Shown here in pieces: positions 8,356-61,374 of a DNA stretch of 64,000 nt (positions within the stretch are counted from its first letter, which is position 1; each line of letters starts with the position of its first letter). The notes beneath the pieces are model-generated. The model did not search any database. It saw only the letters and a list, made by a program, of their open reading frames with translations, and was not told the origin of the DNA. Source of the stretch: Myotis daubentonii (lineage: Eukaryota > Chordata > Mammalia > Chiroptera > Vespertilionidae); assembly GCF_963259705.1 (NCBI RefSeq), contig NC_081842.1, forward strand, positions 91,502,433-91,566,432. The letters run 5' to 3'. The translations under genes were made by a program, and so were the position numbers.

Positions 8356-8812
8356 ATATAATAAAAAGGTAATATGCAAATTGGCCCTAACAGCAGAGCG
8401 ACTCGGAATGACTGGTCACTATGACACACACTGACAACCAGGGGGCAAATGCTCAATGCAGGAGCTGTCCCCTGGTGGTTGGTGTGCTCCCACAGGGGGA
8501 GCTCTGCTCAGCCACAAGCCAGGCTGCCAGCTGCCAGCACAGCAGTGATGGCGGGAGCCTCTCCCACCTCCTCAGCAGTGCTAAGGATGTCCAACTGCAG
8601 CTTAGGCCTGCTTCCCGCTAGCAAGTGGACATCCCTGTGGGCTCCTGGGCTGTCAGAGGGATGTCTGACTAGCAGCTTAGGCCTGATCCCCCAGGGAGTG
8701 GGCTAAGCCAGCAGGTGGACATCCCCCGAGGGGTCCCAGACTGCAAGAGGGCACAGGCCGGGCTGAGGCACCACCCTCCGAGTGCACAAATTTTTGTGCA
8801 CCGGGCCTCTAG
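8356..8812 (+). mobile_element. Helitron (HeliBat-like), 3' unit of a composite element
   Basis: It starts with ATATAATAAAAAGGTAATATGC and ends with the hairpin GTGCACAAATTTTTGTGCAC (8782-8801) followed by CGGGCCT and CTAG (8809-8812), inserted before T. It contains TGACAACCAGGGGGC (8432-8446) and, 20 bp on, an inverted partner. Its body matches the stand-alone Helitron at 60283-60641 by eye: the order of 'gggagcctctccc', 'cttaggcctg' and 'acatcccccgagggg' segments is shared. This supports its being a separate family joined to the upstream unit. Confidence 0.85.
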
Positions 8813-9516: not shown

Positions 9517-9799
9517 CTAGTGGCCTGGTACACATTGAAAGGAAATTAATTAGAAGAAATATTTTAATATCGCTATTCGTCCTTTCTCTATAATAGGTGC
9601 CAACCTAATTCACGATTGACAGATCTAAACACATGTGTGAGATTACCACCAGTGAGAGCTTTATATGTACTGTACATGCACTAGTCAACATTTATTTTTA
9701 AATTGTTAGTGTGCGTCATATGTACCGTTCAATTGGTCGGTTGGTTGGATGGTCGGACGGATGTATGGTCGGTCACTTAGCATTTTATATATATATAGA
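9517..9799 (-). mobile_element. AT-rich Helitron (HeliBat-like)
   Basis: The plus-strand left edge CTAGTGGCCTGGTACAC (9517-) is the reverse complement of a HeliBat 3' end. The right edge ...CATTTTATATATATATAGA before T is the reverse complement of the 5' TC...ATAAAATG end. The A/T insertion context is kept. Unlike the other copies its interior is AT-rich, with a GGTCGGTTGGTTGGATGGTC-like run at about 9737-9770. The 3' hairpin is degenerate. No coding capacity. Confidence 0.7.
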
Positions 9800-14133: not shown

Positions 14134-14383
14134 TCTATATATATAAAAGGCTAAAATGCAAAGTGTCTCCTTGGGAGTTCCACCAGAGACCAGGAATTTG
14201 ATCGCTTACTATGATGTGTGCTGACCACCAAGGGGCGGCTTGGAACGAAGGAAAGCCCCAGCCTGTGGCCAGCAGCCAGGGAAGGGAGGCACTGGCCAGC
14301 AGCCAGAAGGCCCCAATGGTCCCTGATTGCCAGCCAGGCCTAGGGACCTACCCATGCAAGAATTTTGTGCACTGAGCCTCTAG
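14134..14383 (+). mobile_element. Short non-autonomous Helitron
   Basis: 5' end TCTATATATATAAAAGGC after A; 3' end AGAATTTTGTGCACTGAGCCT followed by CTAG (14380-14383) before T. It contains CTGACCACCAAGGGGC (14220-14235), the CTCF-like subterminal motif, as a single copy. The body is GC-rich compared with its flanks. No coding capacity. Confidence 0.88.
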
Positions 14384-14721: not shown

Positions 14722-15375
14722 TTTATGATAAGAATTAACACCTCTTATAAATTGCATGTGCCAGATCACTACTATTAAGTATGCTTTGGCTTTTACTAAG
14801 AGAATCAATTCATGTTATACAAGTAATTGAAACTAAGGAAGATAGTTTCATTAAGTGTCACACATAATCTGCTTTATTATCTCTTCACACTGAGCTTCCA
14901 GAGAAACTTTTAGATGCTAGCAAAATAATCAACTCTGGATGCACTTTCCTATCTGTGCCATTTCAGGTTGTTGGACTTTGAGAAAATATGTCTTCTTTGC
15001 ATCTCCTGTCCTCCTCTGCATTTTGCAGGACAACCCTTGGCAGTAAATGCATTATGTAGTCTCTACAGAACATGCATATTTTGACATTCTGTTTAGATTA
15101 TTTTGGAAAGCCTAGCTCTGAAAACAAAAGCAGCATTAATATACTTTTTTTCCCATTACTGCACACTTTCTGTTGAATATCTATGATTATGACCACTTGA
15201 AAGTAATAGTGATATATATTAACTGTTTAAGAAGATACTATTCTTCATCAGAAACCAAAAGTTTCAAGTACTAATCCTCTCCTCCTACATTAAAAAAAAA
15301 AAAATCTCGTAATATCAAATGCTTACCAGGGTAAAAAAACAATGAATAATTGTTGCAATGGTATATATGAATACA
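14722..15375. other. AT-rich stretch, nothing recognised
   Basis: No gene or repeat identified. An A run of about 13 sits at 15292-15304. Confidence 0.45.
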
Positions 15376-15768
15376 CTAGAGGCCCAGTGCACAAATTCGT
15401 GCACCAGTGGGGTCCCTTGGTCTGGCCTGTGGGATCGGGCCAAAACCAGCTCTCCAACATCACCCGAAGGGTCCCGGATTGCAAGAGGGCACAGGCCAGG
15501 CCAAGGGACCCCATCGGTGCATGATCAGGGTCCGGGAGGGGTGTGGGAGGGGTCCAGGGCTTGTCCGGCCTGTCCAGCTCAGTCCCTATGGGCCAGACCC
15601 AGCAGCAAGCTAACCTACCAGTTGGAGTATCTGCACCCTGGTGGTCAGTGCATGTCATGAAGACTGATTGAGTGGCCTTAGTATATCATTAACATATTAT
15701 GCTTTGATTGGTTGAACGGCCGACCTGACAACCGGACACTTAGCATATTAGGCTTTTATTATATAGGA
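15376..15768 (-). mobile_element. Non-autonomous Helitron
   Basis: Left edge CTAGAGGCCCAGTGCACAAA (15376-) includes the 3' hairpin GTGCACAAATTCGTGCAC. Right edge GGCTTTTATTATATAGGA before T is the reverse complement of the 5' end. CCCTGGTGGTCAGTGCATG near 15629-15647 is one arm of the CTCF-like motif. Minus- and plus-strand frames of 60-111 codons inside it are by-products of GC-rich non-coding sequence. Confidence 0.9.
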
Positions 15769-19611: not shown

Positions 19612-19835
19612 AAAAATGTTCTACCTGATATGAAAAGTTATCATTTTAAAGAAAACAATGAAACTACTTACTGATCCATATTCAGGAACAAAATGGCTTC
19701 AAGGTGCTTTTCATTGTTTTTGGTTTGTTTGTTTGTTTACATTTTCTCAGCACTAAACCATGGCAATGTTAATCTCTACCACCCCCTATTTCTACTTTTG
19801 CTTTGCATATGTAGCTATGTGGTTATATGTGTATA

Positions 19836-20430
19836 TCCTATATAATAAAAGTCCAGTGACCGAATGGCAGAATGACCAGAACAACCAGTCGACCAGTTGC
19901 TTTGATGCGCAGTGACCACCAGGGGGCAGACGCTCAATGCAGGAGCTGCCCCCTGGTGGTCAGTGCACTGCCACAGTGGGAGTGCCGCTCAGCTGACCAG
20001 GATGAGCGGCTGCTCCTGCTACAAACCCCAGGCCTACAGGCAGGAACCCAGGCTGTGATTATTGGCTCCTCGCCCCAGGTTCCTCCTCCTTGCTCCCTGC
20101 CACCTCCTCCTCGCTCCCTGCCATCTAGAGATGCCCGCAGGCCCATGCAGTGCTACTGCCGGAGGCTGGAAGGTGGGTTTGTGGCCACCGTGGGACTGAG
20201 GCCTACTCTGTTGCCTCTCAGTGCTATTGTCCGTGGACCAGGCCCCAACTGGGTCCCCTGGAGAGATGAGTGCTGCAGCTCCACCGAAGATGCTGGATCA
20301 AGGAGCAGCCACTCAGAGGGCGGGTCCACAGCCACTTGGCTGACCAGGATGAGCAGTGCTCCCACAGCGGGCTGATCACCACAGGCCATGCCCCCCACCA
20401 GTGCATGAATCCCATGCACCAGGCCTCTAG
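19836..20430 (+). mobile_element. Non-autonomous Helitron with inverted CTCF-like pair
   Basis: 5' TCCTATATAATAAAAGTCC after A; 3' GCATGAATCCCATGCACCAGGC hairpin followed by CTAG at 20427-20430 before T. Just inside the 5' end, TGACCACCAGGGGGC (19913-19927) and its exact reverse complement GCCCCCTGGTGGTCA (19948-19962) form a 15-bp inverted repeat separated by 20 bp. A 167-codon frame (19872-20375) runs through most of the element but has no recognisable domain and reads as translated GC-rich filler. Confidence 0.92.
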
Positions 20431-20486
20431 TATGTATATATTTATGAATATGTGAATATATATGTGCATTTATGAATATACGCTTA

Positions 20487-20855
20487 CTAGAGGCCCGGTG
20501 CATGGAATTTGTGCATGGGTAGGGTCCCTAGGCCTGGCCGGTGATCAGGGCCCATCTGTGGGATGACTGGCGAGGCAATTGGGAATCCCCAAAGGCATCT
20601 GTTTTGGCCAGCCTGGCTCCACCCACTTGCCAGCCCTGCCCCCTGCCACTGCCGCTTGTTGCCTCCCTTTGCGGGGCAACCTATGGGGTTGATTGGTGGG
20701 CCTCTGCTGGCACCTGCCTTGGCTGTCCTGGAGCCTGCGGGCTGGGAGCAGTTTCTGCTTTGAGTGTCTGCACCCTGGTGGTCAGTGCACATCATAGCAA
20801 CTGGTAGTTCTGCCGGTCCTTCCTCTGGTCGGTCATATTTGGGCTTTTATTATAT
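20487..20855 (-). mobile_element. Non-autonomous Helitron, left member of a tandem pair
   Basis: Left edge CTAGAGGCCCGGTGCATGGA is the reverse-complement 3' end with its hairpin arms. The right edge GGGCTTTTATTATATA lacks the last GGA and runs straight into the CTAG of the next Helitron. CACCCTGGTGGTCAGTGCAC near 20771-20790 is one CTCF-like arm. Either the neighbour inserted within the TATA stretch of this element or the pair arose by rolling-circle read-through. Confidence 0.88.
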
Positions 20856-20856
20856 A

Positions 20857-21182
20857 CTAGAGGCCCACTGCATGAATTCATGCACATGTAGGGTTCCCTG
20901 ACCGGGCAGGTGATCAGGGCCAAACGGGGGGTATGGCCGGCCAGGGGGAGGGACCACGGGAGGTTGGCCTTCTGGCCCCCCTGATCGAGGCTGAGGGGGA
21001 GCCACCCGGCTGCGGGGAGGGATCACAGTAGGTTGGCCAGCTGCGGGAGTTTGGCCAGCAACAGGAGGTTGGCTTTGGGAGTGCACTGACCACCAGGGGG
21101 CTGCTCCTGTGTTGAGTGTCTGCCCCCTGGTTGTCAGCAACTGGTTGTTCGGTCGCTTAGGCTTTTATATATAGAGAGAGGA
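20857..21182 (-). mobile_element. Non-autonomous Helitron, right member of a tandem pair
   Basis: Left edge CTAGAGGCCCACTGCATGAA with hairpin TGCATGAATTCATGCA. Right edge GGCTTTTATATATAGAGAGA, ending at the GA before T at 21182. It contains TGACCACCAGGGGGC (21087-21101) with a one-mismatch inverted partner at 21122-21136. The body has repeated AGGTTGGCC(A/T)-type words shared with the element at 21308. Confidence 0.88.
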
Positions 21183-21307
21183 TTAAATGGTTGGCCATAA
21201 GAAAGAGAATAATTTATTGCCTTTGTAGAATCATTTTATTAGCTGAATACAGGACACAATTGTCTTGTCTCAAACTCATTAAAAATTACTTCTTAATTAT
21301 TACTATA

Positions 21308-21660
21308 CTAGAGGTCTGGTGCAAAAATTTATGCTCTGGTGGGGTCCCTCGGCCTGTCCAGCAATTGGGGCCATCGAGGCAGCAGGAGGTTAGCCAGGGG
21401 GAGGGGCATAGGAGGTTGGCCAGCCAGGGGGAGGGGCCACAGGAGGTTCTGATGGGGGCTGATGGGGCCGGCAGGCTTGGGGGAGGGACCGCGGGAGGTT
21501 GGCCAGCCACGGGAGGTTGGCTGTGGGAGCACACTGACCACCAGGGCATAGCTCCTGCATTGAGCATCTGCCCCTCATGATCAGTGCGCATCATAGCAAC
21601 TGGTTGACCAGTCATTCGGTCGTTCAGTCGTTTGGTCATTTAGTCTTTTATATATAGAGA
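21308..21660 (-). mobile_element. Non-autonomous Helitron
   Basis: Left edge CTAGAGGTCTGGTGCAAAAA with a weakened hairpin. Right edge TAGTCTTTTATATATAGAGA before T. It is in the same family as 20857-21182, sharing the repeated GGAGGTTGGCCAGCC words and the GTCGTTCAGTCGTTTGGTC-type subterminal run. The CTCF-like motif is degraded here (TGACCACCAGGGCAT). Confidence 0.9.
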
Positions 21661-38138: not shown

Positions 38139-38556
38139 CTAGTGGCCCGGTGCACAAAATTCATTCATGGTGTATGTGTGTGTGTGTGGGGGGGGGGGGT
38201 TCTCTCAGCCCAGCCTGCACCCTCTCCAATCGGGGATCCCTTGGGGGATGTCCAACTGCCGGTTTAGGACATCCCTCTCGCAATCTGGGATCACTGGTTC
38301 CTAACAGTTCACCTGCCTACCTGCCTGATCACCTCTAAGTGCCTCTGCCTGCCTGATCACCCCTAACTGCCCTCCCCTGCTTGCCTGACCTTGATCCCAA
38401 CTGCCCTTGCCTGCCAGCCTGATAACCCCTGAATGCCTCTGCCTTGGCCCTCACCACCATGGCTTTGTCTGGAAGGAAGTTGGACCTGAAGATGGCCGGT
38501 CAACCTGGTCTAATTAGCATATTACCCTTTTATTGGTATAGATAGATTATATAGGA
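38139..38556 (-). mobile_element. Non-autonomous Helitron
   Basis: Left edge CTAGTGGCCCGGTGCACAAA. Right edge CCCTTTTATTGGTATAGATA, continuing to TTATATAGGA before T. The 5' end could also be set at 38542, but 38556 gives the better TCCTATATAAT match. A GT/G run sits at 38168-38200. The interior has repeated CTGCCTGCCTGATCACC-type words (about 38306-38440). No CTCF-like pair is present. Confidence 0.85.
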
Positions 38557-39156
38557 TAGAATTGCTTAAATGGGGGAGGAAGCCTTTTTCAGCAGGAGGA
38601 GATGCTCTTGGCAGACAAAAATACATAATTCCTATATCTGGACTGATAGCCAGCAATATGTACTATACATACAAACCGGTCATTAAAAAATTGAACCGCT
38701 TTCTTACACCTTACACCAAACAGCTGTTGCCCTTAAAACCCCTCCTCAGCCCCCACCTTAGGTTCTGCCTTCACAGTTCACCCAGATTTGGTTCTGATTG
38801 GTCAGTTTCTAGGCGAGTCAGTATCTCCAGGCCTATGTCTGGGCCTGATCAGAGAGGCAGGGCTGATCAGCAGCCCCAGCGGCTGCTGGTAAGGCCTGGA
38901 GAGAAAGAGAAACATGGCTGCTGGCCTGGAGAGAAAAAGAGAGGCAAGGGCTGATCAACAGCTGCCACAGAGGCTGCAGATCAGACCCTGCGTCTCTCTC
39001 CGGTCCTCTCTCTGAGCCTGATCCGCAGCCCCCTTGTTAGTCAGTGCTAGGTTGCGGCGACCCAGCATTGACTGCAGGACTGACTTCTGATGTTCAGTCA
39101 TCCATTCGATTGTTTTGAACATTACAGACCCTGGCATATATATATATATATATATA
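38557..39156. other. GC-rich interval between Helitrons, origin unclear
   Basis: Between 38760 and 39080 the sequence is GC-rich, with a GATTGGTCAG CCAAT-type word and a direct repeat of GGCCTGGAGAGAAA (about 38896 and 38923). Just before the TATA run, GTTCAGTCATCCATTCGATTG resembles subterminal sequence of other Helitrons here. It may therefore be a Helitron remnant into which the element at 39157 inserted. A frame of 130 codons (38562-38954) has no recognisable domain. Confidence 0.35.
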
Positions 39157-39841
39157 CTAGAGGCCTGGAGCACAAAAATTTGTGCACTCGGGGAGGAGGG
39201 TGGGGGGTCCCTCAGCCCGGCCTGTGCCCTCTGGCAGTCTGGGACCCCTCAGGAGATAACAACATGCTGGCTTAGGCCTGCTCCCGGGTGGCAGAGGGCA
39301 GGCCCAATCCCTAGGTGCAGCCCCTGGCCGGGCTCAGAGCAGGGCTGATTGGGGAGTTGGGGAGCCGCCCCCTGTCATGCACAGAGCAGGGTGGATCAGG
39401 AGGTTGTGATGCCACCCTCAGTCACGCTCAGGGTAGGGCCGATCGGGGGGTTGGGACGCCACCATTCTCACACTCAGGGCAGGGCAGATGGGGTGGTATG
39501 GCTCTACCCCATCACACACAGAGCAGGGCCCGTCGGGGGGGGGGGGAGGTTGGGGCGCTGCACCCTGTCACACACAGAGCCGCAGGGCGATCAGGGGGTT
39601 GGGGAGCTCCCCCCTATCAGGCACAGAGCAGGGCTGATTAGGGGGTTGGGGCGCCTTCCCCTGTCACGAACAGAGCAGGGCGGATAGGGAGGTTGTGGCC
39701 ACGCCCCCTGTCACACACAGAGCCGCAGGGCGATCAGGGGGTTTGGGCGCTGCCCTCTGTCACACTGATCCCGGTGCCAGGAGGCCTCCGGCTCCACTGA
39801 TCCCAGTGCTGGGAGGCATATTACCCTTTTACTATATAGGA
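39157..39841 (-). mobile_element. Minisatellite-bearing Helitron, 3' unit of composite copy A
   Basis: Left edge CTAGAGGCCTGGAGCACAAA with hairpin GCACAAAAATTTGTGC. Right edge TATTACCCTTTTACTATATAGGA. Between about 39330 and 39750 roughly eight imperfect units of about 50 bp repeat (each with GGGGGTTGGGG and CACACAGAGCAGGGC-type words). Because unit length is near a multiple of three, long repetitive frames of up to 112 codons run through it; they are not genes. It is directly joined at 39841/39842 to the next Helitron. Confidence 0.88.
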
Positions 39842-40475
39842 TAGAGGCCTGGTGCATGGGTGGGGCCCGGCTGGTTTGCCCTGATGGGTGTCCTGGATCA
39901 GGGTGGGAGTCCCCACTGGGGTGCCTGGCCAGCCTGGATGAGGGGATGATGGCTGTTTGCAGCTGGTCACACACCCTTCAGGGTGGGGGTCCCCACTGGG
40001 GTGCCTGGCCACTCTGGGTGAGGGGCTGAGGGCTGTTTTCAGGCTGGAGGGTGACTGAAGCTTCCAACTGCTCCTTTTTTCTTTTTTTTTTTATTCTGGG
40101 CTAGCTTTAGCTCTGGCTCCAGCTCTGAGGCCTCTGCTGCTTAAAGCAGGTATCTGGTTTGTTTGTGTTCTATAATCGAAACACTGTATCAACTCCAGCT
40201 CTGAGATTCCGGCTGGCTGAAAGCAGGTTTCTGGGGTTTTGTTTAGCTTCTATATTTGTAACAATGTTTCAAACTGCAAGCTCAGAGGCCGGCAAGGCAG
40301 GCGGGGAACGTTGGTTTCTTCCGTCACTGAAGCAAGCAAACCTCATGTTAGTTTCAAGCTGCCTGGCTGCCGGCCGCCATCTTGGCTGGCAGTTAATTTG
40401 CATATCTCGCTGATTAGCCATTGGGAAGGGTAGCGGACGTATGGCTAATTACCATGTTTCTCTTTTATTAGATAG

Positions 40476-40479
<4 letters not shown>
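39842..40479 (-). mobile_element. Helitron with CCAAT-like/octamer/YY1 module, 5' unit of composite copy A
   Basis: On the minus strand it runs from TCTCCTATCTAATAAAAGAG (ending at 40479) to CCATGCACCAGGCCTCTA at 39842, where it lacks the final G of CTAG and continues into the TCCTATATAG start of the neighbour. It holds GCCGCCATCTTG (40373-40384, a YY1-type site on the minus strand) and ATTTGCAT (40396-40403). At least two copies of a unit of about 80 bp with the AAGCAGGTATCTGG and CTGAGGCC words are present. It is the same family as 7851-8355 and 40780-41464. Confidence 0.9.

Positions 40480-40538
<59 letters not shown>
40480..40538. repeat. (AT)n microsatellite
   Basis: About 29 AT units abut the 5' end of the Helitron at 40479. 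It lies within the roughly 300-bp spacer between the two inverted composite Helitrons. Confidence 0.95.
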
Positions 40539-40540
<2 letters not shown>

Positions 40541-40779
40541 CATGATACAGGGATATTGTAAATGAACCTCAACTAGTAATCACTAAACACATGGCAACAA
40601 TCTTCAATTACTTTTGACCATTGCTAGATGCAGTGGCTAATCTCTAGGTAAAGAGATCTTGGATCTATTAATGCTCCTAAGATGTCCTCTAGCTTCATAA
40701 ACAGAAGCAATACTAAGAGTCTTAGATTTCATTTCCCAAGGAGTTATTTATTGGTGCATCTTACATGAAACATATACAA

Positions 40780-41464
40780 TCCTATTTAATAATAGACAAG
40801 CATGGTAATTAACCATAACTTTGCTACCCTTCCCATTGGCTAATCAGGGCAATATGCAAATTAACTGCCAACCAACATGGCAGCTGAAGCGAACAGGAGG
40901 CTTGCTTGCTCCAGTGATGGAGGAAGCGAAGGTTCCCCGCCTGCTGCTGCCAGGCTCTGAGCTGCACTCTAAGAAACATTGTTGCAATTATAGAAGCTAA
41001 ACAATCCCCAGAAACCTGCTATCAGCCAGCTTCGGCCTCAGAGCTTAGAGCAGCAGTGATGGCAACAATGTTTCAATTATAAAACCCAAACAAACCAAGA
41101 TACCTGCTTTCAGCAGCCGAGGTCTCAGAGCTGGAGCCGAGCGTCAGAGCTAAGGTCGGCTCTCAGTTCCAGTGACAGCCATAGAAGGTAAATAAATCCC
41201 AGAATAAAAAACAAACAAACAAACAAAAATCAGAAAAAAAGGAGAGCTTCAGTCACCCACCAGCCTGAAAATGGCCCTCAGCCTCTCACCCAGACTGGCC
41301 AGGCACCCCAGTGGGGACCCCCACCCTGAAGGGGGTGTGACCAGCTGCAAACAGCCATCATCCCCTCATCCAGGCTGGCCAGGAACCCAAGCAGTACCCC
41401 CACCCTGATCCAGGACACCCTTCAGGGCAAACCAGCCAGCCTCCACCCATGCACCAGGCCTCTA
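40780..41464 (+). mobile_element. Helitron with octamer/YY1-like module, 5' unit of composite copy B
   Basis: It starts TCCTATTTAATAATAGAC after A and has ATATGCAAATTAACTGCC followed by a weakened YY1-like AACATGGCAGC. It then has two to three copies of a unit of about 90 bp (starts near 40976 and 41065) with the CAATTATA and CCTGCTTTCAGC words. It ends GCACCAGGCCTCTA at 41464 without the G of CTAG and runs into TCCTAATAGTAAAAGG. It is the inverted counterpart of 39842-40479, with many point differences. Confidence 0.88.
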
Positions 41465-42334
41465 TCCTAATAGTAAAAGGGTAATATGCCTCCCAGCACC
41501 AGGATCAGCGGAACCACGAGGCCTCCCAGCACTGGGATCAGCAGAGCCACGAGGCCTCCTGGCCCCTGGAGCAACGTGACAGGGGGTAGCGCCCAAACCC
41601 CCTTATCGCCCTGCTGCTCTGTGTGTGACAGGGGGTGGGGCCACAACCTCCCTATCTGCCCTGCTCTGTTCATGACAGGGGAAGGCACCCCAACCCCCTG
41701 ATAGGCCCTGCTCTGTGCCTGATAGGGGGGAGCTCCCCAACTCCCTGATCAGCCCTGCTCTGTGTGTGAGGGGGTGGAGCCGCAACCTCCCATTGGCCCT
41801 GCCCTGAGTTTGACAGGGGGGAGTGCCCCAACACCCTGATCCACTCTGCTCTGTGTGTGACAGGGGGCGGTGCCCCAACTCCCCTATAGGCCCTACTCTG
41901 TGCGTGACGGGGGGCAGTTTCGTAACCCCCTGATTGGCTGGCTCTGTAAGTGACATGGGTGGCGCCACAACCCCCTGATCTGCCCTGCTCTGTGCATGAC
42001 AGGGGGTTGTGCCGCAATCTCCCCACGGCCCTGCCTTGAGTGTGACAGGGGCGGCGCCCCAACCCCCCAATCGTCCCTACCCTGAGCATGACTGGGGGTG
42101 GCATCGCAACCTCCCCATTGGCCCTGCCTTGAGTGTGACAGGGGGAGGCTCCCCAACTCCCCAATGGGCCTTGCTCTGAGCCCGACCAGGGGCTGTGGGG
42201 CAGGCACCTAGGTATTGGGCCTGCCCTCTGCCAGCAGGTCATTATCTCCCGAGGGGTCCCAGACTGTGAGAGAGCACAAGTGTGGCTGAGGGACAACCCC
42301 CCCCCCCCCCCGCCCCCCGGCCAGTGCACAATAG
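41465..42334 (+). mobile_element. Minisatellite-bearing Helitron, 3' unit of composite copy B
   Basis: From TCCTAATAGTAAAAGGGTAA to a damaged 3' end: GTGCACAA at 42325-42332 passes straight into TAGT, so half of the hairpin and part of the terminus are deleted. A C run at 42298-42311 precedes it. Roughly twelve imperfect units of about 50 bp (41580-42200) contain CAGGGGG and CCCTGCTCTGTG words. A 219-codon minus-strand frame (41670-42329) is produced by these repeats and is not a gene. Confidence 0.86.
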
Positions 42335-59709: not shown

Positions 59710-60282
59710 GCCACACACTATTGTGTGTCAGTTATAAACTGGTGTTTTCTGCTCTCTAGCATCTTCTCTTTGAAAGGTTGTTTTTTTGTTGTAGTTCTTA
59801 GGGGGAAAAAAAAAGTTCTCCCCAAAGATTTTTACCACTGTTGCTATCAAATGTTCTGTATGGTTATGAAGGGAAGGAACTAATGAAACTAAGCTTCCTT
59901 CAATAAACAATCAACTTTATTGTCAATAAATAATCAATAAAATATAATAAAAACCTGCTTCATGATAATACCACATACGAATAAACCATACTGTATCCTG
60001 TATTATATACATGCTTTATCTTTCTCACAGCTTCAGCAATGTGCCCAAGATGCAGTAGGAGATACTACTAACATTTGGATTTGGATGGGAAAAATAAAGT
60101 TGTAAATGAAGCTCTCCCTAGTGATAATAATGAAAACTCTACTACCTATTCAGTTATATTTTAGAGGAATTGCAACTGTGACTTGTTCACAGACTATAAG
60201 TTACTGCAGCCAGATATATCCCTGAAAAACCTAAAGAAATTAGACCAAACTTGGTGAAATGTCTGTACTGCTTTATCTTTAA
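55703..60282. other. Long AT-rich stretch free of young insertions
   Basis: About 4.6 kb without recognisable Helitron, VES SINE or L1. The region 58000-59550 is extremely AT-rich. No coding frame above 76 codons is present and none has a domain. The only clear repeat is the TG array listed separately. Confidence 0.45.
59665..59708. repeat. (TG)n microsatellite
   Basis: About 20 TG units with an initial TGTGTATG interruption. Confidence 0.95.
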
Positions 60283-60641
60283 CTAGAGGCCCGGTGCAGG
60301 AAATCCATGCACTCTGGGGGGGTCCCTCAGCCCGGCCTGTGCCCTCTTGCAGTCCAGAAGCCCTCGGGGGATGTCGGACTGATGGTGGGAGAGCAGGCCT
60401 AAGCTGTCAGTCAGATATCCTTAACACTGGCTGCTGTAGAGGTGGTGGAGGAGGGAGAGGCTCCTGCCACCACCTTTGCACGCACCAGCCCTGAGCCTGG
60501 CTTCTGGTTAAGCAGCACTCCTCCTGTGGGAGTGTACTGACCACCAAGGGGCAGCTCCTGCATTGAGCATCTGGCCCCTGGTGGTCAGTGTGTGTCATTC
60601 CTCTGTTTGGTCAATTTGCATATTACCCTTTTATTATAGGA
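60283..60641 (-). mobile_element. Non-autonomous Helitron, left member of an abutting pair
   Basis: Left edge CTAGAGGCCCGGTGCAGGAA, with hairpin arms TGCA..TGCA. Right edge ATTACCCTTTTATTATAGGA. It has TGACCACCAAGGGGC (60538-60552) with an inverted partner TGGCCCCTGGTGGTCA ending at 60587. The family is the same as the 3' unit at 8356-8812. Its last base abuts the CTAG of the next Helitron. Confidence 0.9.
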
Positions 60642-61374
60642 CTAGGGGCCCAGTGCACAAATTTATGGACCTTGAAAGGAACTGTGGGCTGCAAGGCTGC
60701 ATTGGGCACAGTGGTGGGTCTTGGCCCATCCTCCATGCCCCTGCCTGGCCACACCTACCACAGCCCCCAGTCCCCTGTCTGCCGGCAGCCCCACTTTCAC
60801 CCCCCACTTCCATGCACTGACGGTGTTGGTCCCACTCACACCTGCTGACAGCAAAGAGCAATTAAGACAGCAACAGCTGCAATGCGAGTGGGGCCAGTGC
60901 AGTCAATGGGTGTGAGTGGCGGCTGCTGGCCTTGATCACCTTCAAGAGCAGGGGGAGGTGAAGAAGCCCTCAGGGAAGATTGGGGCTGGCAGCTGAAATG
61001 CGCACCTGCTTACGGCACCAAGTGATCATGGCCGGCACAGGGCACTGGCAGCAGGTGCGAGCGGGGCCAGAGCCGGCAGCAGATGCAAGCACCAGACTGG
61101 ACTGCAGTGCGCAGGAGCAAAGAATTTTCGGTAACCACCAGAGGCTTGCCCCAATGACAGTGACTTGTGCCCCGCCTTGGTCTGGTGCCCCCGCTCACCT
61201 GTTTCACCATCCCGCTGCGCCTGACGCCCACCATGTTTTGAACTCTGCCACCTGTTGCCAACACCCACCATGTTCCGCACACGCGTCCTGGTGGTCAGTG
61301 CATTTCATAGCAACTGGTTGTTCAGTTGTTCCGCTGTTTGGTCTATTTGCATATTAACCTTTTATTATATAGAA
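60642..61374 (-). mobile_element. Non-autonomous Helitron, right member of an abutting pair
   Basis: Left edge CTAGGGGCCCAGTGCACAAA. Right edge TATTAACCTTTTATTATATAGA. One CTCF-like arm (CCTGGTGGTCAGTGCAT) is near 61287-61303. The interior of about 550 bp is GC-rich, with open frames of up to 125 codons on both strands that have no recognisable domain; capture of host sequence cannot be excluded. Confidence 0.86.

What the first reader, a model, noticed from the sequence alone, without database searches (positions are those of the whole stretch)
19913..19962. Helitrons carry an inverted pair of CTCF-like core motifs
TGACCACCAGGGGGC (19913-19927) and its exact reverse complement (19948-19962) lie 20 bp apart near the Helitron 5' end. 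The established CTCF core contains CCACCAGGGGGC. The same pair, intact or with a few changes, is at 8432-8481, 21087-21136 and 60538-60587. Single arms are at 14220, 15629, 20771 and 61287. If bound, these Helitrons could have spread paired, oppositely oriented CTCF sites through vespertilionid genomes, as B2 SINEs did in rodents.
Basis: partly seen in the sequence, partly recalled or inferred. Interest (0 to 1): 0.75.

Follow-up and report, generated by a model that had tools for sequence, protein, structure and literature searches.

The report
Bat Helitrons seeded paired CTCF-like motifs
A family of jumping DNA elements in this bat-like genome has copied what look like tens of thousands of textbook-quality CTCF binding motifs, often as a head-to-head pair, across the genome; whether CTCF, the protein that folds mammalian chromosomes, really sits on them has not been tested.

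Summary
The inverted pair lies exactly where reported, and the window holds a fifth, decayed pair. Both arms at 19913-19962 match the published CTCF consensus CCASYAGRKGGCRS without mismatch. The effect is genome-wide: the exact core occurs 60,299 times in this 2.13-Gb genome (reversed control 86), and 88 of 99 cores examined lie in Helitron left-end modules. The 50-bp pair, within 3 mismatches, occurs 19,500 times (control 0). Of 100 Helitron 5' ends, 34 carry the pair, 42 the first arm only, 24 neither by my cut-off; both arms score 15 bits or more in 25 of the 34 pairs. Changes do not avoid CTCF-critical positions, arms decay like the spacer, pairing is not maintained, and nearby CpGs have mostly decayed: copies drift neutrally. 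Binding is untested; my paper searches showed no CTCF map from a bat. Best reading: a rolling-circle transposon seeded the genome with strong CTCF motifs, of which CTCF probably occupies a fraction; a B2-like effect in a new carrier and paired layout.

The parts
19836..20430 (+). Non-autonomous Helibat-type Helitron carrying the intact pair (TC 5' end, CTAG 3' end)
   Evidence: Sequence: A at 19835, TC at 19836, CTAG at 20427-20430, T at 20431; terminal palindrome 20401-20419 followed by 11 nt to the end
19913..19931 (+). Arm 1, CTCF-like 19-mer; 23.7 bits, p about 5e-9
19944..19962 (-). Arm 2, CTCF-like 19-mer, head-to-head with arm 1; 23.6 bits, p about 6e-9
19928..19947 (+). 20-bp spacer between the 15-bp cores
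8432..8481 (+). Pair in the Helitron with 3' end at 8812; arms 11.9 and 17.3 bits
21087..21136 (-). Pair in the minus-strand Helitron of about 20858-21176; arms 16.4 and 19.1 bits
   Evidence: element ends read by eye
21535..21583 (-).
   Evidence: element ends read by eye
60538..60587 (-). Pair in the minus-strand Helitron of about 60282-60640; arms 15.0 and 15.6 bits
14222..14236 (+). Single arm (arm 1) in the Helitron of about 14134-14383; 16.6 bits as a 19-mer
15633..15647 (-). Single arm (arm 1) in the minus-strand Helitron of about 15375-15768; 14.3 bits
20770..20784 (-). Single arm (arm 1) in the minus-strand Helitron of about 20486-20857; 16.4 bits; spacer kept, second arm broken
61283..61297 (-). 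Single arm (arm 1) of the minus-strand Helitron with 5' end at about 61373; homology breaks inside the arm; 3.3 bits

Best explanation
The shared left end (about the first 130 bp) of a large group of non-autonomous Helibat-type Helitrons ends in a strong CTCF motif without a CpG (arm 1). A sub-lineage carries a second, inverted copy 20 bp further in (arm 2). Rolling-circle amplification copied this module across the genome and thereby seeded about 50,000 exact CTCF cores (extrapolated) and some 20,000 near-intact head-to-head pairs. CTCF probably occupies a fraction of the better-preserved copies wherever chromatin allows, as it does at rodent B2 SINEs. The pair's geometry (N-terminal sides facing each other, by recalled CTCF structure) would make a bound pair a two-way barrier to loop extrusion. 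After insertion the copies drift neutrally. Shown: motif, pair, carrier, copy number, state of decay, lack of detectable constraint. Inferred: rolling-circle amplification (from the family), binding, barrier effect.
For: Both arms match the published consensus with no mismatch (consensus quoted, matches) and score 23.7 and 23.6 bits, above 82-84% of sites drawn from the matrix itself; 4 of 3000 dinucleotide shuffles of the element reach 23.5 bits. CTCF binds sites of closely similar consensus: human VH consensus ACCACCAGGGGGCG with one human VH site tested and bound in vitro, and 111 of 144 predicted mouse sites (consensus GACCAGCAGGGGGC) occupied in vivo (PMC6746451, passages); a mouse ES-cell CTCF motif is tabulated as CCACCAGGGGGCG (PMC6006848, one passage). 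Exact core 60,299 against 86 control. CCASYAGRKGGCRS 72,990 against 140, with 52 of the 100 listed places being the Helitron word CCACCAGGGGGCAG (counted by eye). 88 of 99 exact cores lie in Helitron modules; 74 of the 77 loci concerned match to within 40 positions of the module's 5' end, 3 match only further in. Pair within 3 mismatches 19,500 against 0. 34 of 100 Helitron 5' ends carry the pair, and in 25 of these 34 both arms score 15 bits or more. In 150 kb taken at fixed coordinates, 3 of 3 exact cores and 6 of 7 sites of 17 bits or more are in Helitron modules.
Against: No occupancy data. Changes do not avoid CTCF-informative positions (Spearman 0.09, p 0.75; 0.25, p 0.37; window arms), and arms diverge like the spacer (8.0% and 5.9% against 7.1%). 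CpGs in and near the module are kept in only 15-45% of copies (20-48% in the pooled rows), as expected of DNA methylated in the germline rather than protected by bound CTCF, if these sites began as CpG. 24 of 100 Helitron 5' ends lack the motif by my cut-off, so transposition does not seem to need it. At weaker scores the Helitron share falls: 7 of 12 sites of 15 bits or more and 8 of 16 of 14 bits or more in the 150 kb. The two 19-mers are only 12 bp apart, closer than the bound pairs cited from PMC4562119, so filling both at once is uncertain. The share of cores in Helitrons comes from the first 4 Mb of one contig.
Confidence: 0.6

Rival explanations
1. The segment is a cis-element of the transposon itself (a transposase contact, or a hairpin used in single-strand replication). 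Its CTCF likeness is a coincidence, and copies are silenced and unbound.
For: The block lies at the inner edge of the left end, and the Helraiser LTS of about 150 bp is essential for transposition (PMC4778049, PMC5876387, passages). The conserved block reaches 18 bp upstream of the CTCF core, beyond the motif, and different bodies start at or after it (by eye). The pair folds strongly as single-stranded DNA (z -5.6 for 19836; -2.8 to -2.9 for four other pair copies; -1.1 and -0.3 for two single-arm copies).
Against: 42 of 100 left ends carry arm 1 without the hairpin, and 24 of 100 neither arm, including some that look Helibat1-like (recalled). No compensating changes between arms beyond chance (2 against 1.4 expected, 49 changed positions). 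A chance match this good is rare (4 of 3000 shuffles).
Confidence: 0.25
2. Another zinc-finger protein (for example a KRAB zinc finger raised against Helitrons) is the real reader of the block and keeps it silent; CTCF is excluded.
For: The conserved block is longer than the CTCF core, and CpG decay suggests germline methylation.
Against: The match covers the whole CTCF 19-mer in both arms; no other factor was tested here.
Confidence: 0.1
3. Ordinary GC-rich sequence of a repetitive element; the likeness to CTCF is composition and chance.
For: The element is 61% G+C, and 271 of 3000 shuffles reach 15 bits.
Against: Only 4 of 3000 shuffles reach 23.5 bits with their best site, and here two arms do; the published consensus matches 14 of 14 in both arms. 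The second arm is an inverted copy, so the two are not independent.
Confidence: 0.04

Closest known systems
Rodent B2 SINEs as carriers of CTCF sites (Schmidt et al. 2012, PMC3368268, passages read)
   Same: A lineage-specific transposon carries a CTCF motif and copies it to many thousands of places (over 10,000 in mouse).
   Different: B2 is a retrotransposon with occupancy shown by ChIP-seq; [quoted passage not shown]
Helitron ISX of Drosophila miranda (as described in PMC6598467, passages read) and HSE Helitrons of Caenorhabditis (PMC6927752, passages read)
   Same: Helitrons that spread a binding motif of a host regulator.
   Different: Other hosts and other regulators (dosage compensation, HSF-1); there binding and regulatory effects are reported.
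2xCTS, clustered CTCF sites bound by CTCF and BORIS (PMC4562119, passages read)
   Same: Two CTCF motifs tens of bp apart, including a palindromic case (TP53) used in gel shifts.
   Different: 2xCTSes are defined by occupancy in cells; here only the sequence arrangement is known, and the motifs lie closer together (12 bp between 19-mers) than the examples in the passages (30-40-bp linkers; 33 and 58 bp at TSP50).
BORIS-bound SVA elements (PMC5007689, abstract read)
   Same: A young transposon with clusters of BORIS sites.
   Different: SVA sites lie in its VNTR in human K562 cells, are shown to be bound, and BORIS there mostly represses SVA, which speaks against a simple activating role.
Helraiser/Helibat1 (PMC4778049, PMC5876387, passages read)
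   Same: TC and CTAG ends, 19-bp 3' palindrome 11 nt from the end, insertion between A and T.
   Different: The passages read describe a 3' hairpin; a 5' inverted pair is not mentioned in them.

Membership tests
Helitron, Helibat type (element 19836-20430) | 5' TC and 3' CTAG ends, inserted between A and T | tested here: met
   A19835, TC19836, CTAG20427-20430, T20431; hallmark list from PMC4778049
Helitron, Helibat type (element 19836-20430) | About 19-bp palindrome 11 nt upstream of the 3' end | tested here: met
   GTGCATGAATCCCATGCAC at 20401-20419 (imperfect, 7-bp arms), then 11 nt to 20430
Helitron, Helibat type (element 19836-20430) | Own RepHel transposase, or mobilised by one | not tested
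   At 595 bp the element is too short to code for it; the partner was not sought
CTCF binding site | Matches CCASYAGRKGGCRS | tested here: met
   both arms at 19913-19962 exact; 10 sites with up to 1 mismatch in the window
CTCF binding site | Bound by CTCF in vitro or in cells | not testable with these tools
   No binding data held for this genome
CTCF binding site | Second 9-bp motif M2 at fixed spacing (a quarter to a third of sites, PMC3368268) | not tested
   No M2 matrix was at hand
Transposon that spread CTCF sites (B2-like) | Motif present in the amplifying element and in thousands of copies | tested here: met
Transposon that spread CTCF sites (B2-like) | Thousands of copies occupied in vivo | not testable with these tools
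   Needs ChIP-seq or CUT&RUN
2xCTS (clustered CTCF/BORIS site) | Two or more CTCF motifs close together | tested here: met
   34 of 100 left ends; spacing 35 bp in 31 and 34 bp in 3
[quoted passage not shown]
   No data
Functional element kept by selection | Fewer changes at CTCF-informative positions than elsewhere | tested here: not met
   Spearman 0.09, p 0.75 over 110 arms; 0.25, p 0.37 over 45 arms; 13 of the 14 window arms, mean score no better than with randomly placed changes
Selected hairpin | Compensating changes between the arms | tested here: not met
   2 same changes against 1.4 expected in 34 pairs

The most novel reading that the evidence does not exclude
The Helitron left end is a mobile germline 2xCTS. 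The head-to-head pair recruits CTCF together with its germline paralogue BORIS (CTCFL), which opens the element's left end in male germ cells and so favoured its own amplification. The burst left tens of thousands of two-way loop-extrusion barriers that about doubled the supply of consensus CTCF motifs in this genome and forced the host's chromosome folding, or its silencing systems, to adapt.
Probability: 0.13. Interest if true: 0.87.

Novelty: new variant of a known kind. Interest (0 to 1): 0.64.

Why it matters
Spread of CTCF sites by transposons is documented for SINEs in rodents, dog and opossum (PMC3368268, passages). Here a rolling-circle DNA transposon seems to have supplied about half of the consensus CTCF words of a mammalian genome (52 of the 100 places listed are its word, all from the first 2.9 Mb of one contig, so this is an extrapolation), many as head-to-head pairs. 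That is a natural experiment. If the copies are bound, loop anchors in this bat lineage were rewritten by one transposon expansion. If they are not, the host must have a way to keep CTCF off some 50,000 strong motifs that hold no CpG, and how it does so is an open question. One CTCF profile in one cell line would decide. The layout also lets two-way barriers be compared with single sites, because sister Helitrons carry two arms, one or none.

Tried and rejected
Hairpin as the reason for the pair: rejected as the main account, since single-arm and no-arm left ends are also numerous, and arms do not compensate. Purifying selection for CTCF binding: tested three times, no sign. Germline protection from methylation by bound CTCF: the CpG next to arm 1 was kept more often than pooled other CpGs in the core-selected sample (29 of 60 against 54 of 185, Fisher p 0.008), but the sample drawn by 5' ends did not clearly repeat it (20 of 45 against 54 of 174, p 0.11; the two samples share some copies). 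Left out of the pools: the second spacer CpG (an excess of TG suggests that it was not CpG in the master of the pair class) and, the site at -8. Not counted as evidence. Search for copies in viral contigs: two scans, 0 matches. Papers: Helitron+CTCF+bat, CTCF+Myotis, at least 3 of 4 terms, 25 of 5,899 listed, Helibat or Helraiser, CTCF+Chiroptera+Hi-C, Helitron+CTCF+binding site. From the listings and the passages opened I saw no report of CTCF on bat Helitrons and no CTCF map from a bat. The library lacks most subscription papers, so this does not show that none exists.

Cut-offs of 10 of 15 define 'arm present'. The module profile contains the arms, so three of the 77 module loci rest mainly on the arm region. 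The 100 5' ends and 99 cores are the first listed on contig C1, not a random draw. One window arm with a gap (21570-21583) was dropped from the placement test.

Full report
WHAT IS THERE. The pair TGACCACCAGGGGGC ... GCCCCCTGGTGGTCA stands at 19913-19927 and 19948-19962 as reported. It begins at base 78 of a 595-bp element, 19836-20430, with the Helibat hallmarks given in PMC4778049 (passages): TC start, CTAG end, insertion between A and T, and a 19-bp palindrome 11 nt from the end. A profile of nine left-end modules finds these nine in the window: five with both arms (the decayed pair at about 21535-21583 was not in the finding) and four with the first arm only. Further Helitron ends near 9.79, 38.53, 39.84, 40.48 and 41.47 kb lack the arms, read by eye; inverted repeats were sought at four of them (three had none, the one at 41.47 kb only imperfect GC-rich ones). 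That some of these are Helibat1-like is recalled, not tested.

IS IT A CTCF MOTIF. The published consensus CCASYAGRKGGCRS (as quoted in PMC6746451) matches both arms at 14 of 14 places. Of the other 12 arms of the window, nine score 19.1 to 11.9 bits and three are below 4. Sites drawn from the matrix itself have median 19.6. In 3000 dinucleotide shuffles of the element the best site reaches 23.5 bits in 4 and 15 bits in 271. The two 19-mers hold no CpG, so CpG methylation inside them cannot block binding. CTCF binds sites of closely similar consensus in vitro and, in the mouse IgH locus, 111 of 144 predicted sites in vivo (PMC6746451, passages).

GENOME-WIDE. The window's genome (2.128 Gb, 121 contigs) holds 60,299 exact cores CCACCAGGGGGC; the pattern read backwards gives 86. 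CCASYAGRKGGCRS gives 72,990 against 140, and 52 of the 100 listed places are the single word CCACCAGGGGGCAG, one of 64 words allowed (counted by eye). Around 99 of the 100 listed exact cores, 88 fall in a left-end module and 11 do not (88 loci, one listed core not fetched). Of the 77 loci with a module, 74 match to within 40 positions of its 5' end and 3 only further in. Scaled up, about 54,000 cores lie in Helitrons; this extrapolates from the first 4 Mb of one contig. In 150 kb taken at fixed coordinates there were six modules; all three exact cores were in them, and so were 6 of 7 sites of 17 bits or more, 7 of 12 of 15 or more, and 8 of 16 of 14 or more (one site lies just past the profile match, in a repeated module unit seen). 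The 50-bp pair with up to 3 mismatches occurs 19,500 times, control 0; the 100 listed are all perfect. Among the 100 listed exact cores, nine head-to-head pairs stand at the one spacing of 32 between core starts (read by eye).

A SAMPLE NOT CHOSEN BY THE MOTIF. The 14-letter 5' end CTATATAATAAAAG occurs 42,117 times, control 107. The first 100 places were fetched: 34 carry the pair (spacing 35 bp in 31, 34 bp in 3), 42 the first arm only, 24 neither by the cut-off of 10 of 15. Arm 1 scores 15 bits or more in 58 of 76, arm 2 in 28 of 34, both arms in 25 of 34 pairs; 18 bits or more in both in 13 of 34. The exact 12-mer core remains in 30 of 76 and 18 of 34.

IS IT KEPT BY SELECTION. No sign of it. 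Per-site change is 8.0% in arm 1, 5.9% in arm 2 and 7.1% in the non-CpG spacer (35 of 496), and change does not fall with CTCF information (Spearman 0.09, p 0.75). The core-selected sample says the same for 45 partner arms (5.5% against 39 of 720, 5.4%; Spearman 0.25, p 0.37), as do 13 of the 14 window arms. Arms do not compensate each other (2 against 1.4 expected). CpGs in and near the module are kept in 15-45% of copies (20-48% in the pooled rows), as in methylated DNA, if they began as CpG. So the copies decay neutrally as far as these tests reach; any benefit of the motif lay in the amplifying elements or in a minority of copies.

ANATOMY AND ORIGIN. Across many different bodies the shared left end runs up to CGCTATGACGTGCACTGACCACCAGGGGGC, and bodies change at or after it (by eye; consensus). 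Upstream of that block the left end varies much more (ungapped mismatch 0.41 and 0.53 in the two 18-bp stretches before it, 0.17 in the 18 bp next to the core, with no gaps allowed, so the upstream figures are inflated by length changes). Arm 1 is thus the inner edge of the common left end. Arm 2 belongs to a sub-lineage, 31 of whose 34 copies share the spacer start, against 16 of 42 single-arm copies. Some elements repeat the arm-bearing unit head to tail (53-bp period in L084 and L086). Whether single-arm forms are ancestral or derived was not settled.

HOW IT MOST LIKELY WORKS. Shown: a Helitron carries a CTCF-grade motif, often paired, in tens of thousands of places. Inferred: CTCF occupies a fraction of them, as with B2 in rodents (PMC3368268, passages), limited by heterochromatin. 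The two motifs point at each other; by recalled structure the N-terminal, cohesin-holding sides of two bound CTCFs would face each other, giving a two-way barrier. Close pairs are known: a palindromic pair in the TP53 promoter used in gel shifts, and two sites 58 bp (human) or 33 bp (mouse) apart in the TSP50 promoter, occupied by CTCF and BORIS (PMC4562119, passages). The Helitron pair is tighter (12 bp between 19-mers), so filling both sites at once is an open point. For the bold reading, BORIS turns clustered CTCF sites into start sites and wakes dormant transposons in cell lines (PMC10832218, passages), but at SVA elements it mostly represses (PMC5007689, abstract). Not shown: binding, barrier, any effect on genes.

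KNOWN OR NEW. Transposons that spread CTCF motifs are known, and Helitrons that spread other regulators' motifs are known (PMC6598467, PMC6927752, passages). The combination (Helitron, mammal, CTCF, head-to-head pair, this scale) did not appear in the listings or in the passages opened. I rate it a new variant of a known kind.

Noticed in passing
L084:1-291, L086:1-291, L017:9830-10000: Some Helitron left ends repeat the CTCF-like arm head to tail (53-bp period in L084 and L086, 45 bp in L017), a second way of clustering the motif besides the inverted pair.
   Followed up: partly
window 19836-21659: Four Helitrons lie nearly end to end (about 19836-20430, 20486-20857, 20858-21176, 21309-21659), two of them abutting.
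   Followed up: partly
window 38320-42181: Large GC-rich tandem arrays (among them 47- to 232-bp units) near Helitron-like ends whose left ends lack the CTCF-like arms.
   Followed up: no
L037, L053, L080 (contig C1, 1.22, 1.81 and 3.05 Mb): Three of the 11 non-Helitron cores are nearly identical copies of one sequence with CCACCAGGGGGCGC: another repeated or duplicated carrier of a strong CTCF-like site.
   Followed up: no
module spacer, CpG next to arm 1 (window 19931-19932 in the main copy): This CpG is kept more often than other CpGs in one sample (p 0.008) but not clearly in the second (p 0.11); a weak hint of local protection at most.
   Followed up: yes
window 9517-9795, 14222, 15633, 20770, 61283: In arm-deficient elements the homology to the pair module breaks inside or just after the first arm or spacer, at different points, as if template switches cluster at the palindrome (by eye).
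   Followed up: partly
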